Of a stretch of DNA of 64,000 nt, positions 5,186 to 33,086 are shown piece by piece. Position 1 is the stretch's first letter. Each line of letters opens with the position of its first letter. The DNA is from Stenotrophomonas raiganjensis (SeqCode). Lineage in GTDB: Bacteria; Pseudomonadota; Gammaproteobacteria; Xanthomonadales; Xanthomonadaceae. Location of the stretch: the NCBI RefSeq assembly GCF_030658505.1, contig NZ_JAUTXR010000181.1, forward strand, positions 1-64,000, read 5' to 3'. Position numbers and translations under genes: made by a program. A model generated the notes under the pieces. The model was not told the DNA's origin and searched no databases. It was given only the letters and a program-made list of their open reading frames with translations.

Positions 5186-5249
5186 AAAAGGGACGGAGGG
5201 GATCAAGTCGTAAGTGCATATACGACTTAATCCCCTCCGTCCCCTTTTT
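5186..5249. terminator. Large bidirectional terminator-like palindrome downstream of pilU
   Basis: Left arm 5186-5212 and right arm 5221-5249 read TACGACTT(A/G)ATCCCCTCC and its complement, pairing over about 27 bases with one mismatch and one bulge. T-runs follow on both sides (CCTTTTT on plus, CCCTTTTCC on minus). On the minus strand it lies directly behind the pilU stop and should end that transcript. A smaller hairpin CCTGAATTCTTCAGG (5171-5185) abuts it. Confidence 0.75.
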
Positions 5250-5256
5250 CGCGCGG

Positions 5257-11292: not shown

Positions 11293-12119
11293 GCGGCATC
11301 CAAGCCGAGTTCGGCAGTTCGCCGGGTGCGCTCGTCCGCAGCTTGGTCTCCAATCGCATGCTGATCTGGCAGTTGACCCAGCGTGAGGTCATCAGCCGAT
11401 ATCGTGGTTCGGTCTTCGGGCTGGCGTGGTCCTTCTTCAATCCATTGTTGATGCTGGCGGTCTACACCTTCGTTTTCTCGGTGGTGTTCAAGGCGCGCTG
11501 GGGCGTGGAAACCAGCAGCCATGGTGATTTCGCCGTCATCCTGTTCGTCGGCATCATCGTCCACGGCGTGTTCGCCGAGTGCATCAACCGTGCCCCGGGG
11601 CTGATACTCAACAGTGCCAGCTACGTGAAGCGCGTCGTGTTCCCTCTGGAGACCCTGCCGTGGGTCGCGATGGGTGCCACCCTGTTCCATTCGATGGTTT
11701 CGGTGGTGGTCCTGCTGATCGCCCAGCTGCTCCTGCGCGGCTCGATCCCGCTGACCGCACTGTGGCTGCCGGTGGTGATCCTCCCGCTGGTGGTCGGCAC
11801 CATGGGTGTGTCCTGGCTGCTGGCGGCACTGGGTGTCTACCTGCGTGACATCGGCCAGGTCACCGGCATCGTCACCACGGTGATGCTGTTCATGGCACCG
11901 GTGCTTTATCCGGTGCAGGCCCTGCCGGAGACGCTGCAGCCGTACATCTATCTCAACCCGCTCACGTTCATCATCGAACAGGCACGTGAGGTCCTGCTGT
12001 GGGGTCATGTCCCGGACTTCATCGGGCTGGGCAAGTACGCAGTAGGCGCTGCGCTTGTCGCGTGGTTCGGTTTTGCGACGTTCCAGAAAATGCGCCGGGG
12101 GTTTGCCGATGTCCTCTGA
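11289..12119 (+). CDS. wzm: O-antigen ABC exporter, permease subunit
   Basis: A 276-residue inner-membrane protein of the ABC-2 type with about six transmembrane helices. The N-terminal LIWQLTQREVISRYRGS amphipathic segment before the first helix and the LNPLTFIIEQAR stretch near the C-terminus are typical of Wzm. With Wzt it exports undecaprenyl-linked O-polysaccharide completed in the cytoplasm. The start overlaps the metB stop (ATGA), and wzt begins 11 bases before its own stop. Its presence means the O-chain is made by the ABC-dependent rather than the Wzx/Wzy route; no wzx or wzy is seen nearby. Confidence 0.95.
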   Translation: MSGIQAEFGSSPGALVRSLVSNRMLIWQLTQREVISRYRGSVFGLAWSFFNPLLMLAVYTFVFSVVFKARWGVETSSHGDFAVILFVGIIVHGVFAECINRAPGLILNSASYVKRVVFPLETLPWVAMGATLFHSMVSVVVLLIAQLLLRGSIPLTALWLPVVILPLVVGTMGVSWLLAALGVYLRDIGQVTGIVTTVMLFMAPVLYPVQALPETLQPYIYLNPLTFIIEQAREVLLWGHVPDFIGLGKYAVGAALVAWFGFATFQKMRRGFADVL

Positions 12120-13467
12120 TCCCTCCAGCGATGTCGCCATCCGGGTCAGCGGCGTCACCAAGTGTTTCCAGATCTATGGCCAGCCGCACCAGCGGCTGAA
12201 GCAGGCCGTGCTGCCGCGCCTGCGTCGTGCCGCGGGCCTTGCGCCGCGCCGCTACTACGACGAATTCTGGGCGCTGAAGGGTGTCGATTTCGAAGTGAAG
12301 CGCGGCGACACGGTCGGCATCATCGGCCGCAACGGGTCGGGCAAGTCCACGCTGCTGCAGATCATCTGCGGCACCCTGCAGGCCACTTCTGGAACGGTCG
12401 AGGTCAAGGGGCGCGTGGCGGCCCTGCTGGAGCTCGGCGCGGGGTTCAACCCGGAATTCAGCGGGCGCGAGAACGTCTACCTGAGCGCCTCGATCCTCGG
12501 CCTGACCCGCCAGCAGATCGACACGCGCTTCGACGACATCATCGCCTTCGCCGACATCGGCAATTTCGTCGACCGGCCGGTGAAGACCTACTCCAGCGGC
12601 ATGTACGTGCGACTGGCGTTCGCGGTCATCGCGCACGTCGATGCGGACATCCTGGTCATCGACGAAGCGCTGGCCGTGGGCGATGCCATCTTCGTGCAGA
12701 AGTGCATGCGCTTCCTGCGCAAGTTCCGCGAAACCGGCACGCTGCTGTTCGTCAGCCATGACACCTCCTCGGTGCTCAATTTCTGCCAGAGCGCGGTGTG
12801 GCTCAACCGTGGCGACATGGTCATGCACGGTACTGCCGAAGACACCTGCAACGCCTACATCGAGTACTGCTCGCAGGAGGTGTACGGCGACACGGTGAAG
12901 CTGACCTCGCGCCAGGCCTCGCGTGATGCGGCGCCGGCAAAGCCGCGGTCCAAGGCCCAGGTGGAGCAGGACACGCGTCTGGAAATGTTCGATAACGTTG
13001 CCAATTCGGCTGGCTGGCAGTCCGGTGTCGCCAGCATTGATTCGGTGCTGCTCAGCGATCCCCAGGGCGAAACCCTCACCTCGTTCGCCGGTGGCGAGGA
13101 TGTGCTGCTGCGCGTGCGGGCCACTGCACACCAGGCGCTGTCCAGCCCGTTGATTGGTTTCTTCGTGAAGGACCGGCTGGGTCAGTCGCTGTTCGGCGAG
13201 CACACCTTCACCTACATCCAGCCGCCGATGCAGGTCGAGGCCGGGACGACGCTTGAGGCCAGTTTCCGCTTCACGTTGCCGATGCTGCCCAACGGCGATT
13301 ACTCGATGACCGTTTCCATTGCCGACGGTGATCCGTTCGCCAACACCCAGCATGCGTGGCTGCATGACGCGGTGCTGATCAAGGTCGCCTCGCCCAAGTT
13401 GCGTTATGGCCTGGTGGGCATCCCCTTCGATGAGGTCACCATGAAGCGGGTAGGGGGAGCGGAATGA
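12109..13467 (+). CDS. wzt: O-antigen ABC exporter, ATPase with C-terminal carbohydrate-binding domain
   Basis: A 452-residue ATP-binding subunit. Walker A is GRNGSGKST (73-81), the signature is [11 protein letters not shown] (the SGG motif reads SSGM, as usual in Wzt), and Walker B is [13 protein letters not shown] linker (about 255-295) leads to a beta-rich C-terminal domain (about 300-445) of the Wzt kind, which in known systems binds the modified non-reducing end of the O-chain and so decides which polymers are exported. The acyltransferase and methyltransferase genes directly downstream are candidates for making that terminal cap. Overlaps with wzm (11 bases) and the next gene (4 bases) indicate coupling. 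Confidence 0.95.
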
Positions 13468-18962: not shown

Positions 18963-21044
18963 TCAAGGCGTCAGGTTCGGCATTGCGATCCACAGAAACG
19001 AACAGGCGCCCAGTACCACGGCTGCAGCCACGGCATGATGTGCCAGCCGCTCGAGTTGCGAGCCTGGTCTCAGGTGTGAGAGTTGGGCGCCGAGCAGTAC
19101 ACAGATGCCGAGCACGTACCTGCCTTGTGCCTGGAAATCATAGGTCCAGCTGTGCAGCAGGGACGCGCCCAGCAGGCTGACCGCCGCGCCGGCAGCCAGC
19201 AGGAGCTGGCTGCGTCCCAGTTGCAGCGGCTGCGACGTCGCTGCAGTGCATAGCGCCAGAAGCACCAGCAGCGTAGTCAGTCCCCAGATCGCCTGGTAAT
19301 AGGCCAGTGGAGCGTAGTACTGCATGTAGCCGTAGACGCCGAACAGGCTTTTGGCCGTGGCCACCTGCCATAGCAGGGGAGGCTGGAGCATCTGCGGGAG
19401 CGAATAGCCCTGTTCGTACATGCGAAGGCCGGGGGACGGTGCCGCGTCGCTGGGCTTGAAACCGGGAGCTGCATGGACTTCACGTAGATGATCGACCAGC
19501 TCCGCCTTCTGCGAGCCACTGCCGTTGCGCAGGACATCCACTGCGATCCATGGAGCTGCCAACGCCAGAGCCAGCGCAAACAGCGCGCCGAGGCGGTAGG
19601 CAGGCGCCAGCATCCGGCTGCGGGCAAGTCTCCAGCCGTCGTAAGCCAGGATCATCACCGAAGTGGCGGACAGGACGGCCAGGAGCCAGCCGAGTCCGTA
19701 AGCTTGATGAAGTGCGTGTCCTCCGGCCGCCCACAGAATTCCCGACGTGCAGACGATCGCCATGGCGAGCGACGAGCGGACGGGCAGGCGCAATCCGGCT
19801 GATGCCAGCGTGGTGGCGATGAAGACCGCGACTGGCCAATAGTTCCGCTTGGAGATGATAAGCAGGCCCAGGCACAGCGCGAACAGCAGGGCGTGCACGA
19901 TCACCACCCGCTCGGCGTGGCGCTCACCCAGCAGGTAGCTGCGCAGCGGACTCTCGCGTGTCAACGCAATGCCTGCAGCAAGGCTTGCGGCGGCCAGAGG
20001 AAGCGCATCGCCGTTCATGTACGAAAAGACATACCACGCCTGCGGCGTGACCAGGACCGGTACGAGAGTGAACGGCGAGAGACGCAGCAGGAAAACGGCT
20101 GCGATCAGTAATAGCAATATCGATGCCTGATAGAGCCTGAATCCCTGACGTTCGGTCAGACCAGCCTGCGCTGCGACGTTGCTCGCTTTGCCTGCGAACA
20201 AATACGTCACGTTCCATTCGGCGAGATAGCTGACGCCGTAGGGACTCGCCTGGTACGAGGGCAGCATCTCCGGCGAATCAAGCGCCGGCGGCAGCCAATG
20301 ACTGTTGAAATAACGTGCACCCGCCTCATGCAGATCCTCGTCAGGGCTGACCGAGGGAGAGAGGGTGGCAAACCCTGCGAGCGCGAGCACCAGCGATGCG
20401 CAGATCAGTGATGGCCATGCATAGCTACCGGTATGAGCCATCTGCAGGCCCATCGCAATCGCAAGACAAAGGCCGAGGCCGACCCAGGCCAGCCGGGCAA
20501 GTCGATGCTGCAAGCGCGATGCATTTTCCGCAGGCGTGGGAAGTGCCATCACCAGTTGCGGGTCGCCAGCATCTGGCAGCAACTGGTAGCGCCCATCCTG
20601 GCCTAGCGCTTCGATGGGAACGAGCTCGTTCAGATGGGTCGGGACAAGCGGGGCCACAGCCGAGGGCATTGAGCCCTCGATCCGCACATCGCGTACAGCG
20701 ACGGTCGACGCGCTGGTGGGAGGATCCAGGCGAAGCGTGAATGTACGTCCCGGTGGGAGCTGCAGCTGCAGATGCGAGCTGCCTGCGGGCAGCTCCCGCG
20801 TCACTGACCCGGCCTCGGAGAAACCATTGCCCTGGTCGAAGAAGACCTGAAATGAGCCGGCAGCCGGCAGTTCCACGTCGAGCGTGAGCTCGGCATTGCT
20901 GTACCGGCGGGAGCCCGCCAGCACGACCAGCAACGCGGCGATGACCAGAACGATTAGTTGGCCTCTACGGAACCGAGCCAACCCCTGCCACCAGCTGGAA
21001 CACTGATGGAGCAATCCGGCGGCCGGTTGGGAGGCGCTTGTCAT
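18963..21044 (-). CDS. Large multi-pass membrane protein, possible GT-C glycosyltransferase (DUF2142-like)
   Basis: A 693-residue inner-membrane protein. One helix (about 28-44) leads to a 135-residue beta-rich extracytoplasmic domain (about 50-180), then some 11-12 further helices from residue 185 on. The motif SPDEDLHEAGARYF (233-246) after the second helix resembles the PDE..H motif of DUF2142 proteins and sits where GT-C enzymes carry catalytic acidic residues in the first large periplasmic loop. As last gene of an operon that also encodes a polyprenyl-phosphate glycosyltransferase and a flippase-like protein, it is a good candidate for the periplasmic transferase that moves the sugar from lipid carrier to glycan. 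This role is inferred. The start overlaps rffA (ATGA). Confidence 0.65.
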   Translation of the reverse strand: MTSASQPAAGLLHQCSSWWQGLARFRRGQLIVLVIAALLVVLAGSRRYSNAELTLDVELPAAGSFQVFFDQGNGFSEAGSVTRELPAGSSHLQLQLPPGRTFTLRLDPPTSASTVAVRDVRIEGSMPSAVAPLVPTHLNELVPIEALGQDGRYQLLPDAGDPQLVMALPTPAENASRLQHRLARLAWVGLGLCLAIAMGLQMAHTGSYAWPSLICASLVLALAGFATLSPSVSPDEDLHEAGARYFNSHWLPPALDSPEMLPSYQASPYGVSYLAEWNVTYLFAGKASNVAAQAGLTERQGFRLYQASILLLLIAAVFLLRLSPFTLVPVLVTPQAWYVFSYMNGDALPLAAASLAAGIALTRESPLRSYLLGERHAERVVIVHALLFALCLGLLIISKRNYWPVAVFIATTLASAGLRLPVRSSLAMAIVCTSGILWAAGGHALHQAYGLGWLLAVLSATSVMILAYDGWRLARSRMLAPAYRLGALFALALALAAPWIAVDVLRNGSGSQKAELVDHLREVHAAPGFKPSDAAPSPGLRMYEQGYSLPQMLQPPLLWQVATAKSLFGVYGYMQYYAPLAYYQAIWGLTTLLVLLALCTAATSQPLQLGRSQLLLAAGAAVSLLGASLLHSWTYDFQAQGRYVLGICVLLGAQLSHLRPGSQLERLAHHAVAAAVVLGACSFLWIAMPNLTP

Positions 21045-22174
21045 TCCGCCATGCCCAGGACTTCATCGGCGGCTGCGAAGATCGCATCGAGATGATCCTC
21101 AACGCCGATCCACAACGGCATGCGGACCAGCCGCTCGCTGAGCTCGTTGGTGTTGCGCAGATCGCCGTGTGTACGCCCTGCCTGCAGTCCAGCCGGGGCG
21201 GAATGCAGCGGGATGTAATGGAACACGGTCTGCACGCCGCGGGCCTTCATTTCGCTTATGAATCGCGTGCGGGCATCGAGGTCCGGGACCAGCATGTAGA
21301 ACATATGCGCGTTGTGCTGGCAGTCGTCCGGCACGACCGGCCGACGCAGGTGGCCGGCGGCCTCATGCGGAGCCGCCCACTGCTGATACCGCTCCCAGAT
21401 TGCCAGTCGACGCGCGGTGATCTGGTCTGCTTCCTCTATCTGCGCGCAGAGGAACGCCGCGGTGATCTCACCGGGAAGGAACGATGAGCCAACATCGACC
21501 CAGGTGTACTTATCGACCTGTCCGCGGAAGAAGCGGCTGCGATTCGTGCCCTTCTCGCGCAGGATCTCGGCGCGCTCGCCAAACTCAGCGTCACGACAGA
21601 GAAGAGCACCGCCTTCCCCCGAGATGATGTTCTTGGTCTCATGGAAGCTGAAGGCGCCCAGCTCCCCGATGGTGCCCAGTGGCCGCCCCTTGTAGCTGGA
21701 CATGATGGCCTGGGCAGCATCTTCGACAAGCGCCAGCCCATGACGTGCAGCGATGTCGACCAGGGTATCCATCTCACATGCGACGCCCGCATAGTGGACT
21801 GCGCAGATGGCCCGGGTGCGCGGGGTGATCGCTGCTTCGACCAGGCGTTCATCCAGGTTCAAGGTGTCTTCACGGATGTCGACGAACACCGGGACCGCGC
21901 CCCGCAGAACAAACGCGTTGGCGGTGGAAACGAAGGTGTAGGACGGCATGATCACTTCGTCACCGGGCTGCAGGTCGAGCAGCAGCGCCGCCATCTCCAG
22001 CGCGGCCGTGCAACTGTGGGTCAGCAGCGCCCGCTGCGCCCCGGTGCGCTGTTCAAGCCAGGCGTGGCTGCGCTTGGTGAACTGACCGTCGCCGGACAGG
22101 TGGCCGTTGGCGTGCGCCTGCGCAATGTGCCAGAGCTCACGACCAGTCATGAAGGGCTTGTTGAAGGGAATCAA
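21041..22174 (-). CDS. rffA: dTDP-4-keto-6-deoxyglucose 4-aminotransferase (RffA/WecE)
   Basis: A 377-residue PLP enzyme of the DegT/DnrJ/EryC1 family that converts dTDP-4-keto-6-deoxy-D-glucose to dTDP-4-amino-4,6-dideoxy-D-galactose (Fuc4N). Similarity to E. coli WecE/RffA is obvious along the whole length: IPSYTFVSTANAFVLRGA-type substrate loop, VHYAGVACEMDT, EDAAQ and FHETKN with the PLP lysine at 181, then REKGTNRSQFFRG-like and HYIPLH segments. I chose a TTG start at 22174 because the protein then begins (M)IPFNKPF like the enterobacterial enzyme; the first ATG in frame (22240) would add 22 residues overlapping the gene before. GAGG lies eight bases upstream. RmlA and RmlB, encoded 9-10 kb away, make its substrate. 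Confidence 0.9.
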   Translation of the reverse strand: MIPFNKPFMTGRELWHIAQAHANGHLSGDGQFTKRSHAWLEQRTGAQRALLTHSCTAALEMAALLLDLQPGDEVIMPSYTFVSTANAFVLRGAVPVFVDIREDTLNLDERLVEAAITPRTRAICAVHYAGVACEMDTLVDIAARHGLALVEDAAQAIMSSYKGRPLGTIGELGAFSFHETKNIISGEGGALLCRDAEFGERAEILREKGTNRSRFFRGQVDKYTWVDVGSSFLPGEITAAFLCAQIEEADQITARRLAIWERYQQWAAPHEAAGHLRRPVVPDDCQHNAHMFYMLVPDLDARTRFISEMKARGVQTVFHYIPLHSAPAGLQAGRTHGDLRNTNELSERLVRMPLWIGVEDHLDAIFAAADEVLGMAE

Positions 22175-22208
22175 GAGTGTGCCTCGCAGGGTGGGCGTTG
22201 GAATGGTG

Positions 22209-22574
22209 TCAGGCGACCGATCGTGACAGCACGACCACACCCAGCATGATGATCAGCGTTCCGGCGATCTTGTATCCATCCAGCTGCTCACGGAAGATCA
22301 CGCTGGCAAACAGCGCAACCAGGAAGAAATTGATCGCCATGTACGGGTAGGCCCGGCTGATCGGCATCTTGCTGATGGCCGCCATCCAGCACAGCGATGC
22401 ACCGAAGGCTGCCGCAAAGGCGGAAATGACCCATGGCTTGAGCAGCAGTTGCAGCACGTTCAACGGCTGCAGCGGCGCGGAAAGCAGGTGGCCGTGGACG
22501 CCTACCTGCCACTTCAGGATCAGCTGGCCGTAGACCGTCAGCATGATCGTCAACGCGATGAAGAGGTAGCTCAT
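22209..22574 (-). CDS. Small four-helix DMT/EamA-type membrane protein, putative lipid-linked sugar flippase subunit
   Basis: A 121-residue inner-membrane protein with four predicted helices, resembling ArnE/ArnF and small multidrug resistance proteins (LTVYGQLILKWQ at helix 1, PYMAINFFLVALFASVIFREQL at helix 3, GTLIIMLGVVVLS at the end). Inside an operon with a GtrB/ArnC-like transferase and a GT-C-like protein, the likely job is to flip an undecaprenyl-phosphate sugar to the periplasmic face, as ArnE/F do for aminoarabinose. A drug exporter is less likely here. It may work as a homodimer because no second small subunit is encoded. Confidence 0.75.
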   Translation of the reverse strand: MSYLFIALTIMLTVYGQLILKWQVGVHGHLLSAPLQPLNVLQLLLKPWVISAFAAAFGASLCWMAAISKMPISRAYPYMAINFFLVALFASVIFREQLDGYKIAGTLIIMLGVVVLSRSVA

Positions 22575-22578
22575 CGTC

Positions 22579-23805
22579 TCAGTTCCCTGGCAGGGTGATC
22601 TTGCGGGTCAGCACGTCCAGCAGGTCGGTGCCGTCCCAGACCGGGTGGAAGTCGAGTGCGCGGCCGAAAGGCACGATGCGGTCGATGGCACGATTACCGA
22701 GCCGGTCAAGCAGCTTGATCAGCGATTCCCGCGGGAAACCCTGCACGACGAGCGTCTGGTCGCGATCATCCAGCTGTGGCGCCAGTGCTTCCAGCGTGTC
22801 CAACTGAACGTCCACCACCAGCCCGTGGCCACTCTGCAGCTCGCGCAGGTTTCCATCGGCGCGGGCAGCATCGAGCGTAAGGGGATAGGTGCCCAGTGAC
22901 GTGCCCGAATGCAGCCCATCGGAGGAGAGTGCGGCCATCAGGTGGGCATCGGTCACCCGGGCCATCATCGCGGCGGGCTCATCTGCGACGGCGCCGGATT
23001 GCGAGCGTACCGCAGGCCAGAACCGTGCACGCGCGGCCTCCACTGTTTCCTGCGCGCCAACCCAGTACAGGGTGCGGGGTGAAGAGCACGCCTGCTGGCC
23101 GAACCAGAGAACATCGTTGACGAACCGGTGGGCAAGCTGCTGCAGGTCCGCGTCGCTGCTCTGCAGTACATGCGCGGCATCGATGGCTGCCACACCGAAT
23201 CGATCCGGGAAGGCGAGTTCAACGGCCAACGGCGCCAGCGGCAAGGAACGGATCTTGGCGACCGTTGCGTCGCCGCCCCAGATGATCCGCGCATGGCAGC
23301 TGCGGGAGATCAACGTAGTCACCGCGTCATCATGCGGATAGGTCAGTAGCACGCTGCGCTGCAGGACGTCGGCATGCAGCCCTTCCTCGCGCATGGCGTG
23401 CAGGATCGAGACCAGTGCCTCGCGTTGGGGACTGTGCTTCTGCGACAGGCGGGCTACGTTGCGATTGCCGGCCAGCACGGACATCAGCCAGGCATAGGCG
23501 AACAGCACATCGACGTTGGCCGGCGCAAGATGGAACACCAGGCCACGTGCCAGCAGGTGTTCGGTGGACGGCGCCAGCAGGCGCCGCGACAGCTGCTCCT
23601 GCGCCGCCGGACGGAACCAGTGCGCCAGCGTCGCCAGTTCGGGATGCTCGCGCAGCACCGGCAGCGCGAACACACGTCGTGCGAAATCGGCAACGAACGC
23701 GCGCGCCTCCGCACTGAAGGGTGACAGCGGCGGCAGCGTGGCCAGGCGCGCCAGCTGATCCGGCAGCGCCGCGTCTGCGTCAATGGAGAACAGGATCTGT
23801 GTCAT
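22579..23805 (-). CDS. LuxC-like acyl-CoA/acyl-protein reductase
   Basis: A 408-residue member of the LuxC family (aldehyde-dehydrogenase fold). The nucleophile is very probably Cys240 in WFGQQACSSPR, the typical LuxC site; FHLAPANVDVLFAYAW (about 91-106) and GNRNVARLS are NADPH-fold segments. In luminous bacteria LuxC takes an acyl group from LuxE and reduces it to an aldehyde. No luciferase genes exist here, and the gene lies in a sugar operon and overlaps the LuxE-like gene by ATGA, so it must process an acyl group for glycan modification. Whether it releases aldehyde or only carries the acyl group is unknown. Confidence 0.85.
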   Translation of the reverse strand: MTQILFSIDADAALPDQLARLATLPPLSPFSAEARAFVADFARRVFALPVLREHPELATLAHWFRPAAQEQLSRRLLAPSTEHLLARGLVFHLAPANVDVLFAYAWLMSVLAGNRNVARLSQKHSPQREALVSILHAMREEGLHADVLQRSVLLTYPHDDAVTTLISRSCHARIIWGGDATVAKIRSLPLAPLAVELAFPDRFGVAAIDAAHVLQSSDADLQQLAHRFVNDVLWFGQQACSSPRTLYWVGAQETVEAARARFWPAVRSQSGAVADEPAAMMARVTDAHLMAALSSDGLHSGTSLGTYPLTLDAARADGNLRELQSGHGLVVDVQLDTLEALAPQLDDRDQTLVVQGFPRESLIKLLDRLGNRAIDRIVPFGRALDFHPVWDGTDLLDVLTRKITLPGN

Positions 23806-24905
23806 GCGCGGGGTACCGTTCGTGTGTCGCTGCAGCCGCGGACTTCAACGTTCTTGATGCGGCCCAGTACGCTGAAATGCTTCCCGAGTCGACCGCAAGG
23901 GCAATCGTCCTCGCCGTGGATCACGCCCAGGTCTTCGGTGAGCAGGCTGTGCCCCGGGTAACTGCCAGGCAGCAGGCTCAGCACCTGCACGGCACCTGCG
24001 GTTCCATTGGCTGTTGGGCTGAGATCCTGCAGGTCACGAATGATCACATCGGCATAAGCCGGTGCATGAAGATGACCGTGCTCGCACTCGAAGAAAATCG
24101 ATCCGACCTGCTCGACCATGCCGTAATAATTGTGGACGCGATCAATACCGAAGGTGCTGGAGAGCGAGGCCTTGTAAGCGGCATTGTCGACCTTCTGTTC
24201 GTCCATCTTCTTCCAGCCGCCGCCATGCACCAGCATGCTGCCTTCGGGGAAGCGCAGCGTTACGCCGTCGCGTGCGGCAGCCTGGACAAAGGACTGCCAG
24301 ACGATGAAGGTGAAGCCGAACAGCAGTACCGGTTCGTCCGGGGCGTTGGCCAGCCAGTGCGCCAGAGCTGCCCAGTCGGGCTGCAGCTGTTCGTCGAGCA
24401 GGTACAGATGGTCGCGGCCGAAGTTGGAGAAGCCCAGGATGCCGGCTGCGCGCGCGTTGAAGCGGCTGCGATCGCGCAGGAACGAGTCGTCGTCGATCAC
24501 CAGCATGCGCATCCGGCGGTTGCCGGCAAAGTGGGAGAAGATCCGCGTCAGGGCGCGGGTCTGCGCGCGTGCGGTTTCCGCGTCGAGGAAGATCCTCGAG
24601 ACGGCAGCGCCCGTGGTGCCGCTGGAAACCAGCGTGCGCAGTACCTGGTCGTCGGCGACGCTCTTCAGGTCGATCTGCTTGAACAGCCGGACCGGCAGCC
24701 AGGGCAGCGATTCCAGCGAGTCCGCCTGGCCGCCGCGCCACAATGCATCGAGCATGGCGCGGTAGGGCGGGCAGGACAGGTGGTGATGCCGGGTGAGCGA
24801 CTGCAGGCCGTCCAGCAGCCATTCGCGCTTGGCCTGGCGGCCCAGCCCATAGACCTCCGCTTCCAGCGCAGCCGCTGCCAGCGAACTGTCCGTGCCTGCG
24901 TTCAT
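23802..24905 (-). CDS. LuxE-like acyl-protein synthetase
   Basis: A 367-residue ANL-type protein of the LuxE family, which activates a carboxylic acid as acyl-AMP and moves it to its own cysteine or to a partner. LVSSGTTGAAVSRIFLD (about 90-106) is the nucleotide-binding loop, HNYYGMVEQVGSIFFEC the central motif, and a cysteine-containing tail (DDCPCGRLGKHFSVLGRIK) follows near residue 340. It overlaps both neighbours by four bases. LuxE-LuxC pairs are recurrent outside luminescence in surface-polysaccharide loci, but their substrate is unresolved. A second adenylating enzyme is encoded next to it. Confidence 0.85.
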   Translation of the reverse strand: MNAGTDSSLAAAALEAEVYGLGRQAKREWLLDGLQSLTRHHHLSCPPYRAMLDALWRGGQADSLESLPWLPVRLFKQIDLKSVADDQVLRTLVSSGTTGAAVSRIFLDAETARAQTRALTRIFSHFAGNRRMRMLVIDDDSFLRDRSRFNARAAGILGFSNFGRDHLYLLDEQLQPDWAALAHWLANAPDEPVLLFGFTFIVWQSFVQAAARDGVTLRFPEGSMLVHGGGWKKMDEQKVDNAAYKASLSSTFGIDRVHNYYGMVEQVGSIFFECEHGHLHAPAYADVIIRDLQDLSPTANGTAGAVQVLSLLPGSYPGHSLLTEDLGVIHGEDDCPCGRLGKHFSVLGRIKNVEVRGCSDTRTVPRA

Positions 24906-26299
24906 TGACGTGCTCCTTGCGCGGCGAGCTGCCGCAGCGACAGATAGTCGATCTTGCCGCTGGACAGCAGCGGCAGCGAATCCAGATGGATGCAGCGGAC
25001 CAGACCGCCGAACAGCTTGTAGCGCGCCTGCACCAGTTGGCGGACGTTGTCCTGCGCAGCGGGGGCATCGCCATGGCTGAATACGACCAGATCGTCGTCA
25101 TTGCCCGAGCAGGCGATCTGACGGCCGAGCGCGGTCGACAGCATCGCTTCCACTTCGTCGAGATTGACGCGGTTGCCGGAGATCTTCAGGAACCGTTTGG
25201 CGCGCCCGGTGATGTAATGGAACCCTTCGTCATCCACACGGGCCAGATCGCCCGTGCGAAGCAGGCCGTGCAGTTCGTCGGGGCGCGCAAGTCCTTCGCG
25301 CGAGGTGGCATAGCCCATCATGACATTGGGCCCCTCGTAGACCAGTTCACTGCTTTCCGCATCGACATGCATACGACCACCCGGCACCGCAATGCCGATG
25401 CTGCCGATCTTGTCCAGCAGCCGCTCGGAGGGAACATAGCTGATGCGGGGCGAGGCTTCGGTCTGGCCGTACATGACGAAGAACTGCAGGCCGTGGTCCT
25501 TGGCAGACTCGGCAAAATGCTGGACCAGTTCGTCGCGCAGGCGGCCACCGGCCTGGGTCAGCATGCGCAGGCTGGGCAGCTGCAGGCGCGCAAGGCCCAT
25601 GCGGCGCAGTATTTCGTAGGTGGCCGGAACCCCGGACAGGGAGGTGACCGCATTGCCGCGTGCGGCTTCCCAGAACTCGCGGGTCATCAGGCTGTCTTCG
25701 CTCAGCACCACGCAGCCACCACAGCCCAGATGGCTGTTGAGGATGGACATGCCAAACGAATAGGCCAACGGCAATGTGGTGATGGCGCGGTCTTCGGGAC
25801 CCAGGCCGAGATAGGCAACGATCGATGCCGTGTTCGCGGCCAGGCCCTGCGCGGACAACCGCACCAGCTTGGATGAACCCGTACTGCCCGATGTGCTCAG
25901 CAGCAGCGCCAGGTCGCCATGCGGCGATGGGAGCGTGAGGTGGGTTTCGCGCAGGTGGATGCCCAGAGTGCCTGCGACATGCACCGTCCGGTAACCCGCC
26001 GGCGCCGTGCCCGGCATGGCAAGCCAGTCCGGCGCGTACTGGGTCAGCAGCGCGTCCAGCAGCTCCGGGTCGACATCGGGCTGGATCAGCAGGGGTACCT
26101 GACGGGTACTGCGCAGGGCGCCCAGATAGAGCGCGACCGCGTCGATCGTGCTGGGCATCGCCAGCACGCCCATGCCCCGCCCGGCGGGCAGGTGCGTGGC
26201 CAGGGTATCGGCCAGCACGCCCAGTTCGTCATAACTGAGCGTCCGTGTTCCCTCGATGAGCGCAGTGCGGTTGCCGTGCGCCAACTGCCAGAACTGCAT
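24902..26299 (-). CDS. AMP-dependent acyl ligase (ANL family)
   Basis: A 465-residue adenylating enzyme. The P-loop is STSGSTGSSK (135-144), the A5 motif MYGQTEAS near residue 275, GRAKRFLKISGNRVNLDEVE the hinge/A8 region (about 384-403), and SSGKIDYL near 455 carries the catalytic lysine. With 465 residues it is shorter than most acetyl-CoA synthetases and resembles acyl-ACP ligases of biosynthetic clusters. It most likely loads a carboxylic acid on the acyl carrier protein encoded two genes upstream. The start abuts the FabG-like stop directly. The acid is unknown; a short hydroxy- or keto-acid is plausible given the reductase. Confidence 0.85.
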   Translation of the reverse strand: MQFWQLAHGNRTALIEGTRTLSYDELGVLADTLATHLPAGRGMGVLAMPSTIDAVALYLGALRSTRQVPLLIQPDVDPELLDALLTQYAPDWLAMPGTAPAGYRTVHVAGTLGIHLRETHLTLPSPHGDLALLLSTSGSTGSSKLVRLSAQGLAANTASIVAYLGLGPEDRAITTLPLAYSFGMSILNSHLGCGGCVVLSEDSLMTREFWEAARGNAVTSLSGVPATYEILRRMGLARLQLPSLRMLTQAGGRLRDELVQHFAESAKDHGLQFFVMYGQTEASPRISYVPSERLLDKIGSIGIAVPGGRMHVDAESSELVYEGPNVMMGYATSREGLARPDELHGLLRTGDLARVDDEGFHYITGRAKRFLKISGNRVNLDEVEAMLSTALGRQIACSGNDDDLVVFSHGDAPAAQDNVRQLVQARYKLFGGLVRCIHLDSLPLLSSGKIDYLSLRQLAAQGARQ

Positions 26300-27046
26300 T
26301 CAGACCACCATCTGTCCGTCGATGCCGATGATCTGGCCTGTGATGTAGGCGGAGCTGTCGCCGAGCAGGAACGCGACCAGCTCGGCCACTTCGCGCGGCG
26401 TTCCTGCGCGGCCCATGCCGATCGATTCCACCCGCTTGGCGTGGGCGGCCTGCGGCATGGCGCGGGTCATGTCGGTATCGATGAAACCCGGCGAAATCGC
26501 ATTCACGCGAATGCCCTTGGCAGCCAGTTCCTTCGACGCGGATCGGGTTGCACCGACCAGTGCCGCCTTGCTTGCCGAATACAGGCTCAATCCTGCAGCG
26601 CCATTGACGCCCATGATCGAGACGAGGTTGACGATGCTGCCCTTCCGGGTTCGCGCCATCAACCGGCTTGCATACTGCATCATCATCAACGGCGCTTTGA
26701 CATTCACCGCCAGCACGCGGTCGATGTCTTCGGCACGGATCATGCCCAGAAGACCTTCGTGCAGGACCCCTGCGTTGTTCACCAGCCCATCCAGGCGGCC
26801 GAACTGGTTGAATATCTGCTTGAACACGGCGGCCACCGCATCGACGTCGGCCAGATCGATGACCGCGACCATCGGTTCCGGTGCCCCCTGTGCGGTGACC
26901 TCGGCGGCGAGCGCGCGCAGCGCGTCGTCATCGCGCGCGACGATCACCAGCTGGACGTGCTGTGCTGCCAGCAGTTCGCAGATGGCCCGGCCGATGCCTC
27001 GCGAGGCCCCGGTAACCACGACAACGGGAGCGTGGGTGCCCGTCAT
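26300..27046 (-). CDS. FabG-like 3-oxoacyl-ACP reductase (SDR)
   Basis: A 248-residue classical short-chain dehydrogenase. TGASRGIG (about 12-19) binds NADP(H), NNAG is at about 90, the catalytic Ser-Tyr-Lys set lies in VSIMGVNGAAGLSLYSASKAAL-type sequence, and PGFIDTDMT is the usual product-side loop. Between an acyl carrier protein and an acyl-AMP ligase it probably reduces a 3-oxoacyl-ACP to the 3-hydroxyacyl form. This would give a hydroxyacyl group to be placed on an amino sugar. It lies two bases after the carrier-protein stop. General fatty-acid FabG would not be expected at this place. Confidence 0.88.
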   Translation of the reverse strand: MTGTHAPVVVVTGASRGIGRAICELLAAQHVQLVIVARDDDALRALAAEVTAQGAPEPMVAVIDLADVDAVAAVFKQIFNQFGRLDGLVNNAGVLHEGLLGMIRAEDIDRVLAVNVKAPLMMMQYASRLMARTRKGSIVNLVSIMGVNGAAGLSLYSASKAALVGATRSASKELAAKGIRVNAISPGFIDTDMTRAMPQAAHAKRVESIGMGRAGTPREVAELVAFLLGDSSAYITGQIIGIDGQMVV

Positions 27047-27048
27047 TG

Positions 27049-27297
27049 TCAGACAGCAGCGCCGTGCTTGCGCAGGATTTCGCGCGCCTTGCCGACCGAG
27101 CTCATGTCGATCACTTCGTCCATGTCGATCATGACGTTGAACGCTTCTTCCAGTGCGGCGACCACGGACATGTGCGCGATCGAATCCCACTGCGGAATGG
27201 TGTTGTAGCGCAGTTCGTCAGTCACCTGGGAGGCATCGATGCCCAACACGCGGGCGAACACGGCTACAACCTGGTCTTCGTTGCTGGAGTTGCTCAT
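27049..27297 (-). CDS. Dedicated acyl carrier protein
   Basis: An 82-residue acidic four-helix protein. The phosphopantetheine serine is Ser39 in PQWDSIAHMS (a DSxxH rather than the DSLxx of fatty-acid ACP), followed by the recognition helix and FNVMIDMDEVIDM. Such divergent ACPs are common in secondary pathways and in O-antigen loci that attach unusual acyl groups. Its start overlaps the GNAT gene stop by four bases, so it is co-translated with its likely consumer, the WecD-like acyltransferase. Confidence 0.92.
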   Translation of the reverse strand: MSNSSNEDQVVAVFARVLGIDASQVTDELRYNTIPQWDSIAHMSVVAALEEAFNVMIDMDEVIDMSSVGKAREILRKHGAAV

Positions 27298-28055
27298 AGG
27301 AATTTCCGGAACCCGTTAAGAGATGAATTGAATTGGAAGCCAAGCCGGGCATACAGATTGATGATGCCGGTATTGGCGGCGGACACCAGCGTCGTGCAGC
27401 GCTGGATATCCCTGGTAGCCAGCGATTGCAGGGCAGTGACCCATAGCGGCATGGCCAGCATGGCGTACGGGGCGGCTGCACCTGTCAGCAGCAGCTCTGC
27501 CCTGTGCTCGTCGGCGAAGACTCGTTCTGCATGGAAGCCAATGACACGGCCGCGTGATTCCGCGGTTTGGACCAGCTGGGCGTTGACCAGGTCCTCGATC
27601 CAGTTGGCGGTGCGAAGACGTGCGTGTGCAGGGTCGATGGCAGGGTCTTCCAGAAAACGGCCATGCCCGAAGTCGTCGGCGGCGATGGACCGCAGCAACG
27701 GAATGTCCGCAGCAATGGCCGGCCGCAGCGTAGGCAGCATCCCGCGCGGGACCGCAGGCAGTTGCCCCATGCCGCTGCGTGACACGGTCAGTGACGTTTC
27801 AACGAACTGGAAGCCACAGCCGAGCACCGCAGCACGCAACGCATGCGCATTGGCATCGATGCGACCGAACAGGTAGTGGACACCCTGCTGCCTGGCCCAG
27901 GCCTGGGCCTGGTCGAGCATTGCGGCCGCCTGGTCCGTGGTGGCCGCATCCAAACGGACGATCTCGGCAGTGGTGCAGCCCAGCGCGCGCTCATCCCAGG
28001 GCGTCAGGCGCGCCTCGACCACGCTGCCGCCTGCCTGCAGAGACAAGTGGCTCAT
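27294..28055 (-). CDS. WecD/RffC-like GNAT N-acyltransferase
   Basis: A 253-residue protein that resembles E. coli WecD (dTDP-Fuc4N N-acetyltransferase): an N-terminal domain opening LTPWDERALGCTTAEIVRLD and a GNAT domain with LRPAIAADIPLLRSIA, GHGRFLEDP..DPAHARLRTANWIED and a C-terminal NTGIINLYARLGFQF acyl-donor helix and strand. WecD acylates the 4-amino group of dTDP-Fuc4N, the product of RffA from the same operon. With an ACP and a loading system encoded beside it, this version may use an acyl-ACP instead of acetyl-CoA. That switch is inferred. The overlap with the GT2 gene is ATGA. Confidence 0.75.
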   Translation of the reverse strand: MSHLSLQAGGSVVEARLTPWDERALGCTTAEIVRLDAATTDQAAAMLDQAQAWARQQGVHYLFGRIDANAHALRAAVLGCGFQFVETSLTVSRSGMGQLPAVPRGMLPTLRPAIAADIPLLRSIAADDFGHGRFLEDPAIDPAHARLRTANWIEDLVNAQLVQTAESRGRVIGFHAERVFADEHRAELLLTGAAAPYAMLAMPLWVTALQSLATRDIQRCTTLVSAANTGIINLYARLGFQFNSSLNGFRKFL

Positions 28056-29023
28056 GGAGCTTCTCCGCGAACGGTCGTTTCAGAGACGATGTAGTAGGGG
28101 CGCCGTTGCACATTGCGGAAGACCTGGCCGACGTACAGCCCCACAACGCCCATGGAGAACATCATCAATCCGCCAATCAGCCAGATTGCGGCGATGATCG
28201 AGGTGTAACCCGCAACCTGGATGTCGCCGTCCCACCATCGCCAGATGCTGATGGCCACCATGACGAAGGCGACCAGCGCGCAGAACATGCCAGTGCCGGC
28301 CACCATGCGCAGCGGCTTCTCCGAGTAACCCAGGGCGATGTTCATGGCCAGCCGCAACAGGCGCCGCAGGGTGTAGGACGATTCACCCTCTGCGCGCTGC
28401 TGGTGGCGTACGGGAAGCTTGCCCGTGCGGAAGCCGGCCCATTTCACCATCAGCGGGAACGAGCGATCACGTTCCGGCATTGCACAGACCGCGTCGATGA
28501 CCTTGCGGTGGAATATGCCGAAATTGGCCGTGGAAGGGTCCTGCGGCACGCCGGTCAGCCAGCCCAGCACCGCAAAGAACCCCCACGACGAGAGGCGCTT
28601 GAGCGGGGTGTCCATGCGCTGTATCCGCTGCGCGAACACGGCTTCAAACTGCTCATCCACCGCCTTGCGGTACAGGCCGGGAATTTCTGCAGGAACATCC
28701 TGCAGGTCGCAATCCATGACGACCGTCCAACGGCCCTGGGCATGCTCGATGCCGGCTGAAATGGCCGAGTGCTGCCCGAAATTTCGCGAGAGCTTCAGGC
28801 CCTTGAGCCAAGGCCGGCTGGCGGCCAGCTCCTCGATGCGCGGCCATGCGCCGTCAGGGCTGGCGTCGTCGACCAGGATCATCTCGAACGACACGCCCAT
28901 GGATCCTGCCGCAGCCTGGACCTGATCGACGAGATCTTCCAGGCACCCTTTACAGCCATAGACAGGCGCGACGACCGACAGTTCGACCGGCGGCTGCGGA
29001 GGGGAAGGCGGAACAGCGGTCAT
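28052..29023 (-). CDS. GT2 polyprenyl-phosphate glycosyltransferase (GtrB/ArnC-like)
   Basis: A 323-residue DPM1-like enzyme. The GT-A domain (to about 215) shows LSVVAPVYGCKGCLEDLV, ILVDDASPDG, DCDLQD (the DxD metal site) and the QRAEGESSY motif; two C-terminal helices (about 236-258 and 270-292) anchor it to the inner membrane. This family moves a sugar from a nucleotide to undecaprenyl phosphate for use in the periplasm. It is the first gene of the ten-gene minus-strand operon. The ATG at 29023 is preferred because an earlier in-frame start would give an unrelated Arg-rich extension. Its donor is probably the N-acylated dTDP-amino sugar made by the neighbours. Confidence 0.88.
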   Translation of the reverse strand: MTAVPPSPPQPPVELSVVAPVYGCKGCLEDLVDQVQAAAGSMGVSFEMILVDDASPDGAWPRIEELAASRPWLKGLKLSRNFGQHSAISAGIEHAQGRWTVVMDCDLQDVPAEIPGLYRKAVDEQFEAVFAQRIQRMDTPLKRLSSWGFFAVLGWLTGVPQDPSTANFGIFHRKVIDAVCAMPERDRSFPLMVKWAGFRTGKLPVRHQQRAEGESSYTLRRLLRLAMNIALGYSEKPLRMVAGTGMFCALVAFVMVAISIWRWWDGDIQVAGYTSIIAAIWLIGGLMMFSMGVVGLYVGQVFRNVQRRPYYIVSETTVRGEAP

Positions 29024-29178: not shown

Positions 29179-30117
29179 TCAGAGCGCCTTTTCCAGCTCC
29201 GGCAGGATCGCAAACAGATCCCCCACCAGGCCGATATCGGCAATCTCGAAGATCGGCGCATCGCCGTCCTTGTTGATCGCGACGATCGTGCCGGCATCCT
29301 TGATGCCGGTCAGGTGCTGGATCGCACCGCTGATGCCGACGGCCACGTACAGTTCCGGCGCGATGATCTTGCCGGTCTGGCCGACCTGCAGGTCGCTGGG
29401 CACGTAGCCGGCATCGACCGCGGCGCGCGAGGCGCCGACGGCGGCACCGAGCTTGTCGGCCAGCTGGAAGATGACCTTGAAGTTCTCTTCCGAGCCGACG
29501 CCACGGCCGCCGGAGACCACGCGCTTGGCGCTCTGCAGGTCCGGGCGGTCGCTGGCACCGGCGGCCAGGCCGACGAAGCGGGTGTGGGTCGGCAGCGCAG
29601 CGTCAACGCTGGCCGCTTCGATGGCGGCACTGCCGCCCTGGGCGGCTTCCGGCCACGACGCGGCGCGCACGGTGGCGACCACGATCTGGTCGGCCGGGGC
29701 TTCCACGGTGATGATCGCGTTGCCGGCGTAGATCGGGCGCTTGAAGGTATGGCTGCCTTCAACGCTCATCAGGTCGGAGACCTGGTTGACGCCGAGCAGG
29801 GCAGCCACGCACGGCATCAGGTCCTTGCCGAAGGTGGTGGACGGGCCGAACACGTGGGTGTAGCCCTTGGCCAGCTGTGCGATCTGCGGCGCCAGTACCT
29901 GGGCGATGGCCTGCGCGTTGGCGGCGTTGGCGACGGTCAGGACCTTGGCGACGCCGGCGATCTTCGCGGCCTCGGCGGCGACCGCGGCCGGGTCGGCGGC
30001 CAGCACCAGCACGTCGATGCTGGCGCCGCTGATGGCGGCAGCAGCGCTGACGGTCTTGGCGGTGGCGGCGTTGAGCTTGCCGTCGTGGTGCTCGGCGATG
30101 ACGAGAATCCTGCTCAT
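29179..30117 (-). CDS. etfA: Electron transfer flavoprotein alpha subunit
   Basis: A 312-residue FAD-binding subunit of the heterodimeric electron carrier that passes electrons from acyl-CoA dehydrogenases to ETF-ubiquinone oxidoreductase. The C-terminal FAD domain has [33 protein letters not shown] and [18 protein letters not shown], the family signature. It overlaps etfB by one base (TAATG), so both are made together. In Xanthomonas the etf genes mark the right border of the O-antigen locus, exactly as here. Confidence 0.97.
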
Positions 30118-30968: not shown

Positions 30969-31128
30969 TGCGTATGGTGACTGCTTCGGCTGTTGCGATG
31001 CAGCAATGCAGTCGGCCTGAGTTCACTTGTGTGATCGCGTGTTACCGCAGGCCCGTTGTATCCTTAAACGTTGCATTGTCGTGGCCATGAAGGCCCCGTC
31101 TCACGAATCACGATCAGGAGAACAGGTA

Positions 31129-32184
31129 GTGCCTACATGGCTTGTCACCGGCGGCGCCGGATTCATTGGCGGTAACTTCGTTCTCGAGGCCGTCGCGCGC
31201 GGCGTCAAGGTCATCAACCTCGATGTGCTGACCTACGCCGGCAACCTGAAGACCCTGTCCAGTCTGGACGGCAACCCCAACCACCTGTTCGTGCAGGGCG
31301 ACATCGGCGACCGTGATCTGGTCGCCCGCCTGCTGGCCGAACATCGGCCGGATGCCGTGGTGAATTTCGCCGCTGAAAGCCACGTTGATCGCTCCATCGA
31401 CGGTCCCGGCGCCTTCATCCAGACCAACGTGGTCGGCACCCTGGGCCTGCTGGAGGCCGTGCGCGATTACTGGAAGGCGCTGCCGGCCGAGCAGGGCACG
31501 GCGTTCCGCTTCCTGCACGTGTCCACTGACGAGGTGTACGGCACCCTGGGCGAGACCGGCAAATTCAGCGAAACCACCCCGTACGCCCCGAATTCGCCGT
31601 ACTCGGCCTCGAAGGCGGCTTCGGATCACCTGGTCCGTGCCTTCCACCACACCTACGGGCTGCCGGTGCTGACCACCAACTGCTCCAACAATTACGGCCC
31701 GTACCACTTCCCCGAGAAGCTGATCCCGCTGGTGATCGCCAAGGCGCTGGCTGGCGAGCCGCTGCCGGTGTACGGCGATGGCAAGCAGGTGCGCGACTGG
31801 CTGTTCGTGTCCGACCACTGCGAAGCGATCCGCACCGTGCTGGCCAAGGGCCAGGTCGGCGAGACCTACAATGTCGGCGGCAACTCGGAAAAGCAGAACA
31901 TTGAAGTGGTGCAGGCCATCTGCGCACTGCTGGACCAGCGCCGCCCGCGCGCGGATGGCCAGCCGCGCAGCAGTCAGATCACCTATGTCACCGACCGCCC
32001 CGGCCATGACCGCCGCTATGCGATCGATGCGTCCAAGCTGAAGAACGACCTGGGCTGGGAACCGGCCTACACCTTCGAGCAGGGCATCACCTTCACCGTC
32101 GACTGGTACCTGGACAACCAGGAATGGGTCAACGGCGTGCTGGATGGCAGCTACCGCCTGCAGCGCATCGGCACTGCCGCCTGA
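31129..32184 (+). CDS. rmlB: dTDP-glucose 4,6-dehydratase
   Basis: A 351-residue extended SDR enzyme making dTDP-4-keto-6-deoxyglucose from dTDP-glucose. [10 protein letters not shown] binds NAD, STDEVYG carries the catalytic Thr-Asp-Glu, and YSASKA the Tyr-Lys pair. I chose GTG at 31129 because AGGAG (31116-31120) sits eight bases before it and the Rossmann motif then begins at residue 7; the in-frame start upstream adds an unconserved tail. The product feeds both RmlC/D (dTDP-rhamnose) and RffA of the nearby acyl-sugar operon. Confidence 0.95.
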
Positions 32185-32198
32185 GGCTGGGAGAGAAC

Positions 32199-33086
32199 AT
32201 GACGCAACGCAAGGGCATCATCCTGGCCGGCGGTTCCGGCACCCGGCTGTACCCGATCACCAAGGGCGTCAGCAAGCAGCTGCTGCCGGTGTACGACAAG
32301 CCGATGATCTATTACCCGCTCAGCGTGTTGATGCTGGCGGGCATCCGCGAAGTGTTGATCATCAATACCCCGCACGAACAGGCGCTGTTCCAGCAGCTGC
32401 TGGGCGACGGCTCGCAGTGGGGCATGGACATCCAGTACGCGGTGCAGCCGAGCCCGGACGGCCTGGCCCAGGCCTACCTGATCGGCCGCGACTTCGTGGC
32501 CGGCAAGCCGAGCTGCCTGGTGCTGGGCGACAACATCTTCCACGGCCACGGCCTGCGCGACGTGCTCAAGCGTGCCGATGAACGCGTGGATGGCTCGACT
32601 GTGTTCGGCTACTGGGTCAATGATCCGGAACGTTACGGCGTGGCCGAGTTCGACATCAGCGGCAAGGTCATCGACCTGGTGGAGAAGCCGGAGAACCCGC
32701 GCTCGAACTATGCGGTGACCGGCCTGTATTTCTACGACGGCAACGCCAGCGATTACGCGGCCGAACTGAAGCCGTCGCCGCGTGGCGAACTGGAGATCAC
32801 CGATCTCAACAAGCGCTACCTGGCCGAGGGCAACCTGCACCTGGAAGCGCTCGGCCGTGGCTATGCGTGGCTGGATACGGGCACCCACCAGTCGCTGCTG
32901 GAAGCCTCAAACTTCATCGAGACCATCCAGACCCGCCAGGGGCTGCAGGTGTGCTGCCCGGAGGAAATCGCCTTCGGCAAGGGCTGGATCAACGCCGAGC
33001 AGCTGGAAGCACTGGCCGCACCGCTGATCAAGAATGGTTACGGCCAGTACCTGCATAAGCTCGCGCTGCGTGGAGTCGTTCCGTGA
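32199..33086 (+). CDS. rmlA: Glucose-1-phosphate thymidylyltransferase
   Basis: A 295-residue nucleotidyltransferase producing dTDP-glucose from dTTP and glucose 1-phosphate. [20 protein letters not shown] is the nucleotide-binding signature; [10 protein letters not shown] and [20 protein letters not shown] are substrate-site motifs. GGGAGAGAAC precedes the ATG by a good distance. It follows rmlB after 14 bases and overlaps rmlC by GTGA. The gene order BACD is the one found in Xanthomonas. Confidence 0.97.

What the first reader, a model, noticed from the sequence alone, without database searches (positions are those of the whole stretch)
18963..29023. Ten-gene operon that appears to make and attach an N-acylated 4-amino-4,6-dideoxy sugar
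Seen: ten minus-strand genes with overlaps or gaps of 0-34 bases encode a GtrB/ArnC-like transferase, WecD-like N-acyltransferase, ACP, FabG, acyl-AMP ligase, LuxE, LuxC, ArnE/F-like protein, RffA and a GT-C-like membrane protein. Known: RffA makes dTDP-Fuc4N, WecD acylates it, GtrB-type enzymes load undecaprenyl phosphate. Inferred: the ACP set makes a special acyl group for the amino sugar, which is then flipped and added in the periplasm. I know of no described system with exactly this combination.
Basis: partly seen in the sequence, partly recalled or inferred. Interest (0 to 1): 0.9.

Follow-up and report, generated by a model that had tools for sequence, protein, structure and literature searches.

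The report
O-antigen operon with portable acyl module
A Stenotrophomonas bacterium carries ten genes that appear to make a rare amino sugar, attach an unusual small acyl group to it and hang it on the cell-surface polysaccharide, and the acyl-making gene set recurs beside other amino-sugar pathways in distant bacteria.

Summary

Outside this operon the module lies beside a classified acyltransferase in 15 of 19 loci that hold it: 8 PseH-like GNATs in pseudaminic acid loci, 7 hexapeptide enzymes.

My reading: a portable donor module for 4-amino-4,6-dideoxyhexoses that reduces one carboxyl of a diacid and loads the hydroxyacid on the ACP. Predicted group C4H6O3 (dihydroxybutanoyl), which fits the 376.14-Da pseudaminic acid of an Aeromonas with this gene order. 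No chemistry was tested.

The parts
28052..29023 (-). GtrB/ArnC/PgfS-like GT2 with two hydrophobic stretches: loads the sugar on undecaprenyl phosphate (inferred)
   Evidence: PF00535; PgfS 179.8 and ArnC 147.8 bits, both below cut-off; hydropathy count
27294..28055 (-). WecD-like GNAT N-acyltransferase
27049..27297 (-). acyl carrier protein; Ser39 carries the prosthetic group (inferred)
   Evidence: PF00550; Ser39 kept in at least 93% of 27 ACPs
26300..27046 (-). FabG-like SDR
   Evidence: TIGR01830 230.9 bits, below the 297.75 cut-off; S144, Y157, K161 kept in at least 93% of 25
24902..26299 (-). AMP-forming acyl ligase (acyl-ACP ligase, inferred)
   Evidence: PF00501; Arg285 in 28 of 28 module ligases
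23802..24905 (-). LuxE-type acyl-protein synthetase
   Evidence: PF04443 165.4 bits; C-terminal Cys358 kept in at least 93% of 28; only LuxE match of the genome
22579..23805 (-). LuxC-type acyl reductase
   Evidence: PF05893 90.5 bits; Cys240 kept in at least 93% of 28
22209..22574 (-). EamA / ArnE-F-like small membrane protein, putative flippase
   Evidence: PF00892; ArnF 41.7 bits, below cut-off 99; four hydrophobic stretches
21041..22174 (-). RffA/WecE, dTDP-4-amino-4,6-dideoxygalactose transaminase
   Evidence: NF008687 597.5 bits over cut-off 375; closest PDB 4piw/6blg; only copy over the TIGR02379 cut-off in the genome
18963..21044 (-). GT-C glycosyltransferase; residues 49-173 weakly resemble CBM60
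31027..33086 (+). rmlB and rmlA: supply dTDP-4-keto-6-deoxyglucose
   Evidence: TIGR01181 507.7 and TIGR01207 506.3 bits, over cut-offs
11289..13467 (+). wzm-wzt ABC exporter, taken as the O-antigen exporter
   Evidence: ABC2_membrane over cut-off; TagH/Wzt-like ATPase below curated cut-offs
29179..30117 (-). etfA, conserved border of the locus
   Evidence: next to GtrB in 11 of 12 other genomes, about 3 kb away in L108

Best explanation
The operon makes an N-acylated Fuc4N and hangs it on the O-antigen in the periplasm. Steps: RmlA/RmlB and RffA make dTDP-Fuc4N (well supported by family cut-offs). LuxE activates one carboxyl of a small diacid, LuxC reduces it to the aldehyde, the FabG-like SDR reduces that to an alcohol, and the AMP ligase loads the other carboxyl on the dedicated ACP (inferred). 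The WecD-like GNAT moves the acyl group from the ACP to the 4-amino group (inferred from linkage and divergence). A GtrB-like enzyme puts the sugar on undecaprenyl phosphate, the EamA protein flips it, and the GT-C transfers it to the exported polymer (inferred). The acyl module is portable and serves other 4-amino sugars through other acyltransferases.
For: Order kept in 13 distinct genomes, this one included. The GNAT changes with the module more than RffA does: 13 loci with RffA 63-74% identical but no module have GNATs only 24-32% identical; 6 of 6 loci with the module have GNAT 58-99% and RffA 75-94%. ACP, ligase, SDR, LuxE, LuxC and RffA keep catalytic residues. Outside this operon the module sits beside a classified acyltransferase in 15 of 19 loci; the 8 GNAT loci also carry PseI over its cut-off, 8 of 8. 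In another Stenotrophomonas (L106), also at etfA, the module is joined to GtrA, a DesI-like transaminase, GtrB and a VioB/PglD-like enzyme. V. [quoted passage not shown] The GT-C is exchanged while genes 1-8 stay 98-100% identical.
Against: No product, substrate or structure of this LPS was found. The GNAT/RffA contrast is confounded by relatedness: all module loci in it are Xanthomonadaceae, the others are not, and a GNAT may simply evolve faster; L051 has the module with RffA 74% and GNAT 46%. In 4 of 19 loci no acyltransferase was recognised beside the module (L056, L059, L080, L091). L082, L087 and L088 have no FabG hit in the stretch fetched. LuxE and LuxC also occur without ACP or acyltransferase (L060, L092-L095). 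Distances of the five genes correlate only weakly outside Xanthomonadaceae (r -0.03 to 0.47 over 11 loci). L006 has no GT-C on the same strand after RffA in the 1.6 kb held.
Confidence: 0.68

Rival explanations
1. Liposugar: the module makes or handles a medium- or long-chain fatty acyl group, as suggested for flagellin islands, and the O-antigen carries a lipid-like sugar.
For: LuxC, LuxE and FabG names come from fatty-acid chemistry; both flagellin-island papers suggest a liposugar.
Against: LuxE and LuxC score 59 and 29 bits against the bioluminescence models (cut-offs 550 and 750). No ketosynthase among the ten genes. The Aeromonas linking sugar of 376.14 Da fits one C4H6O3 group in place of an acetyl.
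Confidence: 0.12
2. 3-Hydroxybutanoyl route: FabG reduces acetoacetyl-ACP to 3-hydroxybutanoyl-ACP; LuxE and LuxC do something else.
For: (S)-3-hydroxybutanoyl on N-4 of QuiN4N is reported in several polysaccharides (PMC8074265 passages).
Against: Leaves LuxE, LuxC and the ligase without a role; no ketosynthase among the ten genes. Predicts 360.15 Da for pseudaminic acid, not 376.14.
Confidence: 0.15
3. The GNAT only acetylates (Fuc4NAc as in enterobacterial common antigen) and the ACP/Lux genes act on another part of the glycan.
For: WecD is its best structural match; that WecD uses acetyl-CoA is recalled.
Against: GNAT and ACP genes overlap here and are neighbours in all 13 genomes; the GNAT diverges with absence of the module.
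Confidence: 0.1
4. The product is not O-antigen but another envelope glycan or a glycoprotein modified by the GT-C.
For: GT-C folds include protein glycosyltransferases (Pmt4 is the best match).
Against: The locus is the metB...etfA locus with wzm/wzt; the GT-C varies between strains.
Confidence: 0.12

Closest known systems
Vibrio cholerae O1 tetronate genes (rfbKLMNO / VC0248-VC0252)
   Same: Carrier, AMP ligase (substrate given as 2,4-dihydroxybutanoate), alcohol dehydrogenase, LuxE-LuxC type protein RfbN and an acetyltransferase, N-acylating a 4-amino-4,6-dideoxyhexose (passages).
   Different: Perosamine backbone instead of Fuc4N; iron alcohol dehydrogenase instead of SDR; RfbN named as both synthase and reductase. 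A GtrB/EamA/GT-C set is not mentioned in the passages seen. No sequence comparison was made here.
Acyl set of Aeromonas group II and enterobacterial flagellin glycosylation islands
   Same: The same five kinds of gene, in A. piscicola directly after pseH (PMC7874193 passages; PMC4875605 section 9).
   Different: Linked there to pseudaminic acid and other flagellin sugars; RffA, a WecD-like GNAT and a GT-C are not mentioned in what I saw. Sequences not compared.
Gtr-type periplasmic O-antigen modification (GtrA-GtrB-Gtr; recalled)
   Same: GT2 loader, small membrane protein, exchangeable polytopic transferase.
   Different: EamA/ArnE-F-like protein instead of GtrA; own nucleotide-sugar and acyl synthesis.
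Enterobacterial common antigen WecE/WecD branch (recalled)
   Same: RffA/WecE over cut-off; WecD-like fold of the GNAT.
   Different: ACP-linked donor expected; sugar loaded by a GtrB-like enzyme rather than built into lipid III.
Pseudomonas syringae modified viosamine (recalled, no call)
   Same: N-(hydroxyacyl) 4-amino-4,6-dideoxyhexose with fatty-acid-synthesis-like genes.
   Different: 3-hydroxybutanoyl, ketosynthase-type gene; LuxE/LuxC not recalled there.

Membership tests
dTDP-Fuc4N synthesis (RffA/WecE) | transaminase over curated cut-off with catalytic Lys | tested here: met
   NF008687 and TIGR02379 over cut-off; Lys186 kept in at least 93% of 20
dTDP-Fuc4N synthesis (RffA/WecE) | supply of dTDP-4-keto-6-deoxyglucose | tested here: met
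   rmlA and rmlB over cut-offs nearby
WecD N-acetyltransferase | curated WecD model passed | tested here: not met
   TIGR02382 28.2 bits, cut-off 195.1
WecD N-acetyltransferase | WecD fold | tested here: met
   [not shown]
Tetronate-type acyl pathway (V. cholerae O1) | carrier, AMP ligase, acyl-protein synthetase, acyl reductase, reductase of the aldehyde, acyltransferase | tested here: met
   all six kinds present, the reductase of another family; compared by description only
Tetronate-type acyl pathway (V. cholerae O1) | product is 3-deoxy-tetronyl (2,4-dihydroxybutanoyl) | not testable with these tools
   no chemistry; mass argument only by analogy with Aeromonas
Tetronate-type acyl pathway (V. 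cholerae O1) | sequence kinship with RfbK, L, N | not tested
   no V. cholerae sequence was compared
Bioluminescence fatty acid reductase (LuxCDE) | LuxC and LuxE pass the bioluminescence models | tested here: not met
   29 of 750 and 59 of 550 bits
Gtr three-component system | GT2 undecaprenyl-phosphate loader of the GtrB/ArnC kind | tested here: inconclusive
   best hits PgfS and ArnC below cut-off
Gtr three-component system | GtrA-type flippase | tested here: not met
   the small membrane protein is EamA/ArnF-like; a GtrA is present in the variant L106
Gtr three-component system | polytopic GT-C transferase that varies with the acceptor | tested here: inconclusive
   GT-C fold and exchange between two families shown; acceptor not tested

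The most novel reading that the evidence does not exclude
One widespread five-gene module makes a single short hydroxyacyl-ACP (predicted 2,4-dihydroxybutanoyl, by reduction of one carboxyl of malate) and plugs into several 4-amino-4,6-dideoxyhexose pathways (Fuc4N, the pseudaminic acid precursor, Qui4N/bacillosamine-type sugars) through unrelated acyltransferases. It would explain the 376.14-Da pseudaminic acid of Aeromonas and predict N-(dihydroxybutanoyl)-Fuc4N as a side sugar of Stenotrophomonas O-antigen, transferred by an exchangeable GT-C.
Probability: 0.4. Interest if true: 0.72.

Novelty: new variant of a known kind. Interest (0 to 1): 0.6.

Why it matters
Genes for a 'fatty acid' set in flagellin and polysaccharide loci have been given no function beyond a guessed liposugar in the two papers I saw. 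If the module makes a small hydroxyacyl group for 4-amino sugars, unknown glycan masses and O-antigen loci become predictable from sequence. The operon also shows an O-antigen decoration system in which sugar, acyl group and acceptor specificity look like separate exchangeable parts.

Tried and rejected
PDB sequence searches with the GNAT (E up to 1), LuxC (0.01) and GT-C (1) gave nothing. A profile of the GNAT family finds only WecD, weakly (E 0.0038). Foldseek for the GT-C gave no match at E <= 0.001; the second look carries that claim. The idea that the five genes are inherited as one block everywhere was tested by distance correlation and is weak outside Xanthomonadaceae. GC content is even (0.63-0.67 per 2 kb), so no compositional sign of recent import. 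The promoter/terminator scan is at the level of shuffles. I looked for a ligase residue specific to the module: Arg285 is in 28 of 28 module ligases and absent at that place in three fused-type relatives, but the unlike ligase of L011 also shows an Arg there, so it is not diagnostic. My first ORF picker hid several genes by choosing wrong frames and was replaced. Fetched but not analysed: L054 and L055 (weak GNAT hits). L052 and L053 hold distant LuxE and no module; L060 has LuxE and LuxC only. Not fetched: G235, G675, G794, G809. Ten paper searches (open-licence PMC only) listed no description of the ten-gene set; subscription journals were not searched, and Stenotrophomonas O-antigen structures in them could settle the matter.
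Full report

Where it is. The contig belongs to a Stenotrophomonas: the same-genus genome G1044 has the contig length of S. maltophilia LMG 978. To the left lie a metB-like gene (cystathionine gamma-synthase model over cut-off), wzm, a TagH/Wzt-like ATPase gene, a hexapeptide acetyltransferase-like gene, a methyltransferase domain protein, a 916-residue protein with a GT2 domain and a weak GT4-like hit, and a 350-residue protein without a hit. To the right lie etfA, then genes I read as etfB, and rmlB, rmlA (over cut-offs) with genes I read as rmlC and rmlD (not scanned). metB and etfA border the variable LPS locus of Xanthomonas (PMC524487 and PMC2238763, seen in the search listing only). The genome has one LuxE match and one RffA over the cut-off.

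How widely it is kept. In the family the GNAT is found in 10 of 297 genomes, 8 of them strongly (E 5.2e-70 or better). In the genus LuxE is in 9 of 91 genomes at E <= 1e-30. One search examined 16 fetched loci; 15 hold GtrB-GNAT-ACP-FabG-ligase-LuxE-LuxC-EamA-RffA in that order. etfA lies directly upstream in 11 of the other 12 and about 3 kb upstream in L108. The sixteenth locus, L106, is the variant described below. A methyltransferase gene stands between EamA and RffA in 5 of the 13. The GT-C after RffA belongs to family A in 5 (window included) and to an unrelated or very distant family B in 7; in L006 none follows on the same strand in the stretch held.

A natural part swap. Against LMG 978 the 250-base blocks from 29255 to 22006 are 98-100% identical, fall to 83-86% inside rffA and to 34-69% over the end of rffA and the GT-C, whose proteins are 35% identical. 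The end of the operon has thus been exchanged by recombination, as expected for the part that chooses the acceptor (inference).

The GNAT changes with the acyl module. One search gave 26 loci with a GNAT relative. Six have the whole module, GNAT 58-99% and RffA 75-94% identical. Thirteen (L013-L016, L018-L022, L024-L027; Zoogloea, Gallionellaceae and others) have GtrB and an RffA 63-74% identical but no hit to ACP, ligase, LuxE or LuxC, and there the GNAT is only 24-32% identical. The remaining seven are L007 (see below), L009, L010 and L012 (RffA-like 32%), L011, L017 and L023 (no RffA in short contigs). A wider ACP/ligase probe of the 19 loci L009-L027 found a ligase in L011 and a weak one about 8 kb off in L025, and no ACP; some of these loci are short. 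Two cautions: the module loci here are all Xanthomonadaceae, so relatedness is mixed in, and L051, the most distant module locus, has RffA 74% with GNAT 46%. I read the pattern as a change of acyl donor from acetyl-CoA to acyl-ACP (inference).

The module elsewhere. LuxE relatives were found in 6 of 369 genomes of the class (E <= 1e-10), 22 of 398 of the phylum (E <= 1e-30) and 41 of 72,556 plasmid records. Of the 22 phylum genomes three were already in hand (window, G071, G641), 16 regions were fetched and three were not. Five plasmid-collection loci were read. Nineteen loci outside the ten-gene operon hold ACP, ligase, LuxE and LuxC (L044, L045, L056-L059, L080-L091, L106). In 15 a classified acyltransferase is the next gene or one gene away. 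Eight are GNATs (L044, L045, L081, L085-L088, L090): PseH is the best NCBIfam family in 8 of 8, 64-85 bits, none over the cut-off of 93.1, and the same eight loci carry a pseudaminic acid synthase PseI over its cut-off (8 of 8). Seven are hexapeptide enzymes (L057, L058, L082-L084, L089, L106); the NeuD/PglB/VioB model was scanned in four and is the best family in four, over the cut-off in one (L082). L080 has an unclassified 295-residue neighbour; in L056, L059 and L091 none was recognised. Left out of the nineteen because no ACP was found: L060 and L092-L095 (LuxE and LuxC, the latter four fused in frames of 820-825 residues). PseH, PglD, VioB and WecD act on the 4-amino group of a 4-amino-4,6-dideoxyhexose (recalled).

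L106 is the sharpest case: a Stenotrophomonas in which the locus at etfA carries GtrA, a DesI-like transaminase (178 bits, cut-off 650), a GtrB-like GT2, the five-gene module and a VioB/PglD-like enzyme, here running towards etfA instead of away from it. Sugar enzyme, acyltransferase and flippase differ; the module is of the same kind (ACP 59%, LuxE 51%).

What the module makes. Shown: ACP Ser39, LuxC Cys240, LuxE Cys358, the SDR Ser-Tyr-Lys and the ligase phosphate loop are kept in at least 93% of 25-28 sequences; that these cysteines are the acylated ones of LuxC and LuxE is recalled. From papers: RfbL of V. [quoted passage not shown] tetronate acylates perosamine (PMC3441752 passages); a LuxE domain in RfbN is noted in PMC4772473 (passages). 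The original pathway paper (Morona 1995) was seen only as a reference entry. Inferred: LuxE and LuxC reduce one carboxyl of a diacid to the aldehyde, the SDR makes the alcohol, the ligase loads the other end on the ACP. Malate would give 2,4-dihydroxybutanoyl, C4H6O3, 102.03 Da.

An outside check. A. piscicola AH-3 has five ORFs for such proteins directly after pseH (PMC7874193 passages). Its flagellin linking sugar is a pseudaminic acid derivative of 376.14 Da, and the glycan also holds an unknown 102-Da moiety. Pseudaminic acid with one acetyl replaced by C4H6O3 is 376.148 Da; with hydroxybutanoyl it would be 360.153. An O-methylglyceroyl group has the same formula, and the Aeromonas sequences were not compared here, so this is support, not proof.

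Other modules. L007 (Lysobacter prati) has GtrB, a GNAT 44% identical, an ACP-like protein (no Pfam hit), an SDR, another AMP ligase and EamA, but no hit to LuxE, LuxC or RffA; its ligase is 44% identical to one in L011. A different acyl group and sugar seem to be in use there.

Judgement. It is not a new kind of system: it joins known parts, and the module has been described without function. What is new to me is the module's place beside 4-amino-sugar acyltransferases of different folds, the GNAT change that goes with it, the exchangeable GT-C, and a concrete, testable product. Ten paper searches did not show this link in print, within an open-licence library.

Noticed in passing
L058, L082, L083, L089: Ligase, LuxE and LuxC sit with transketolase genes beside a PglD-like acyltransferase (annotated pair in L058, with a GMC oxidoreductase; read by eye in L082 and L083, one subunit in L089): perhaps a two-carbon extension of the aldehyde.
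   Followed up: no
   Followed up: partly
L007 10001-13469 and L011 2648-5980: Another SDR-ligase module (with an ACP-like protein in L007) serves the same GNAT family without LuxE and LuxC.
   Followed up: partly
L003, L004, L006, L047, L108: A methyltransferase gene lies between EamA and RffA, and EamA is 61-66% identical to the window's in these against 86-100% in six of the seven other loci (58% in L051): the flippase may follow methylation of the sugar.
   Followed up: partly
[not shown]
   Followed up: no
L059 (Nonomuraea gerenzanensis) and L057 (Deinococcus plasmid): The five-gene module also occurs in Actinomycetota and Deinococcota, in L057 beside glycosyltransferases and a PglD-like enzyme, in L059 near a DegT-type transaminase.
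   Followed up: partly
L056 (Ponticoccus plasmid): LuxC lies apart from the rest of the module on the other strand; no acyltransferase recognised.
   Followed up: no
L108 about 2600-5500: About 3 kb of unread sequence stands between etfA and the operon, unlike the other genomes.
   Followed up: no
window 15122-17872: A 916-residue protein with a GT2 domain and a GT4-like hit below cut-off in the plus-strand part of the locus.
   Followed up: no
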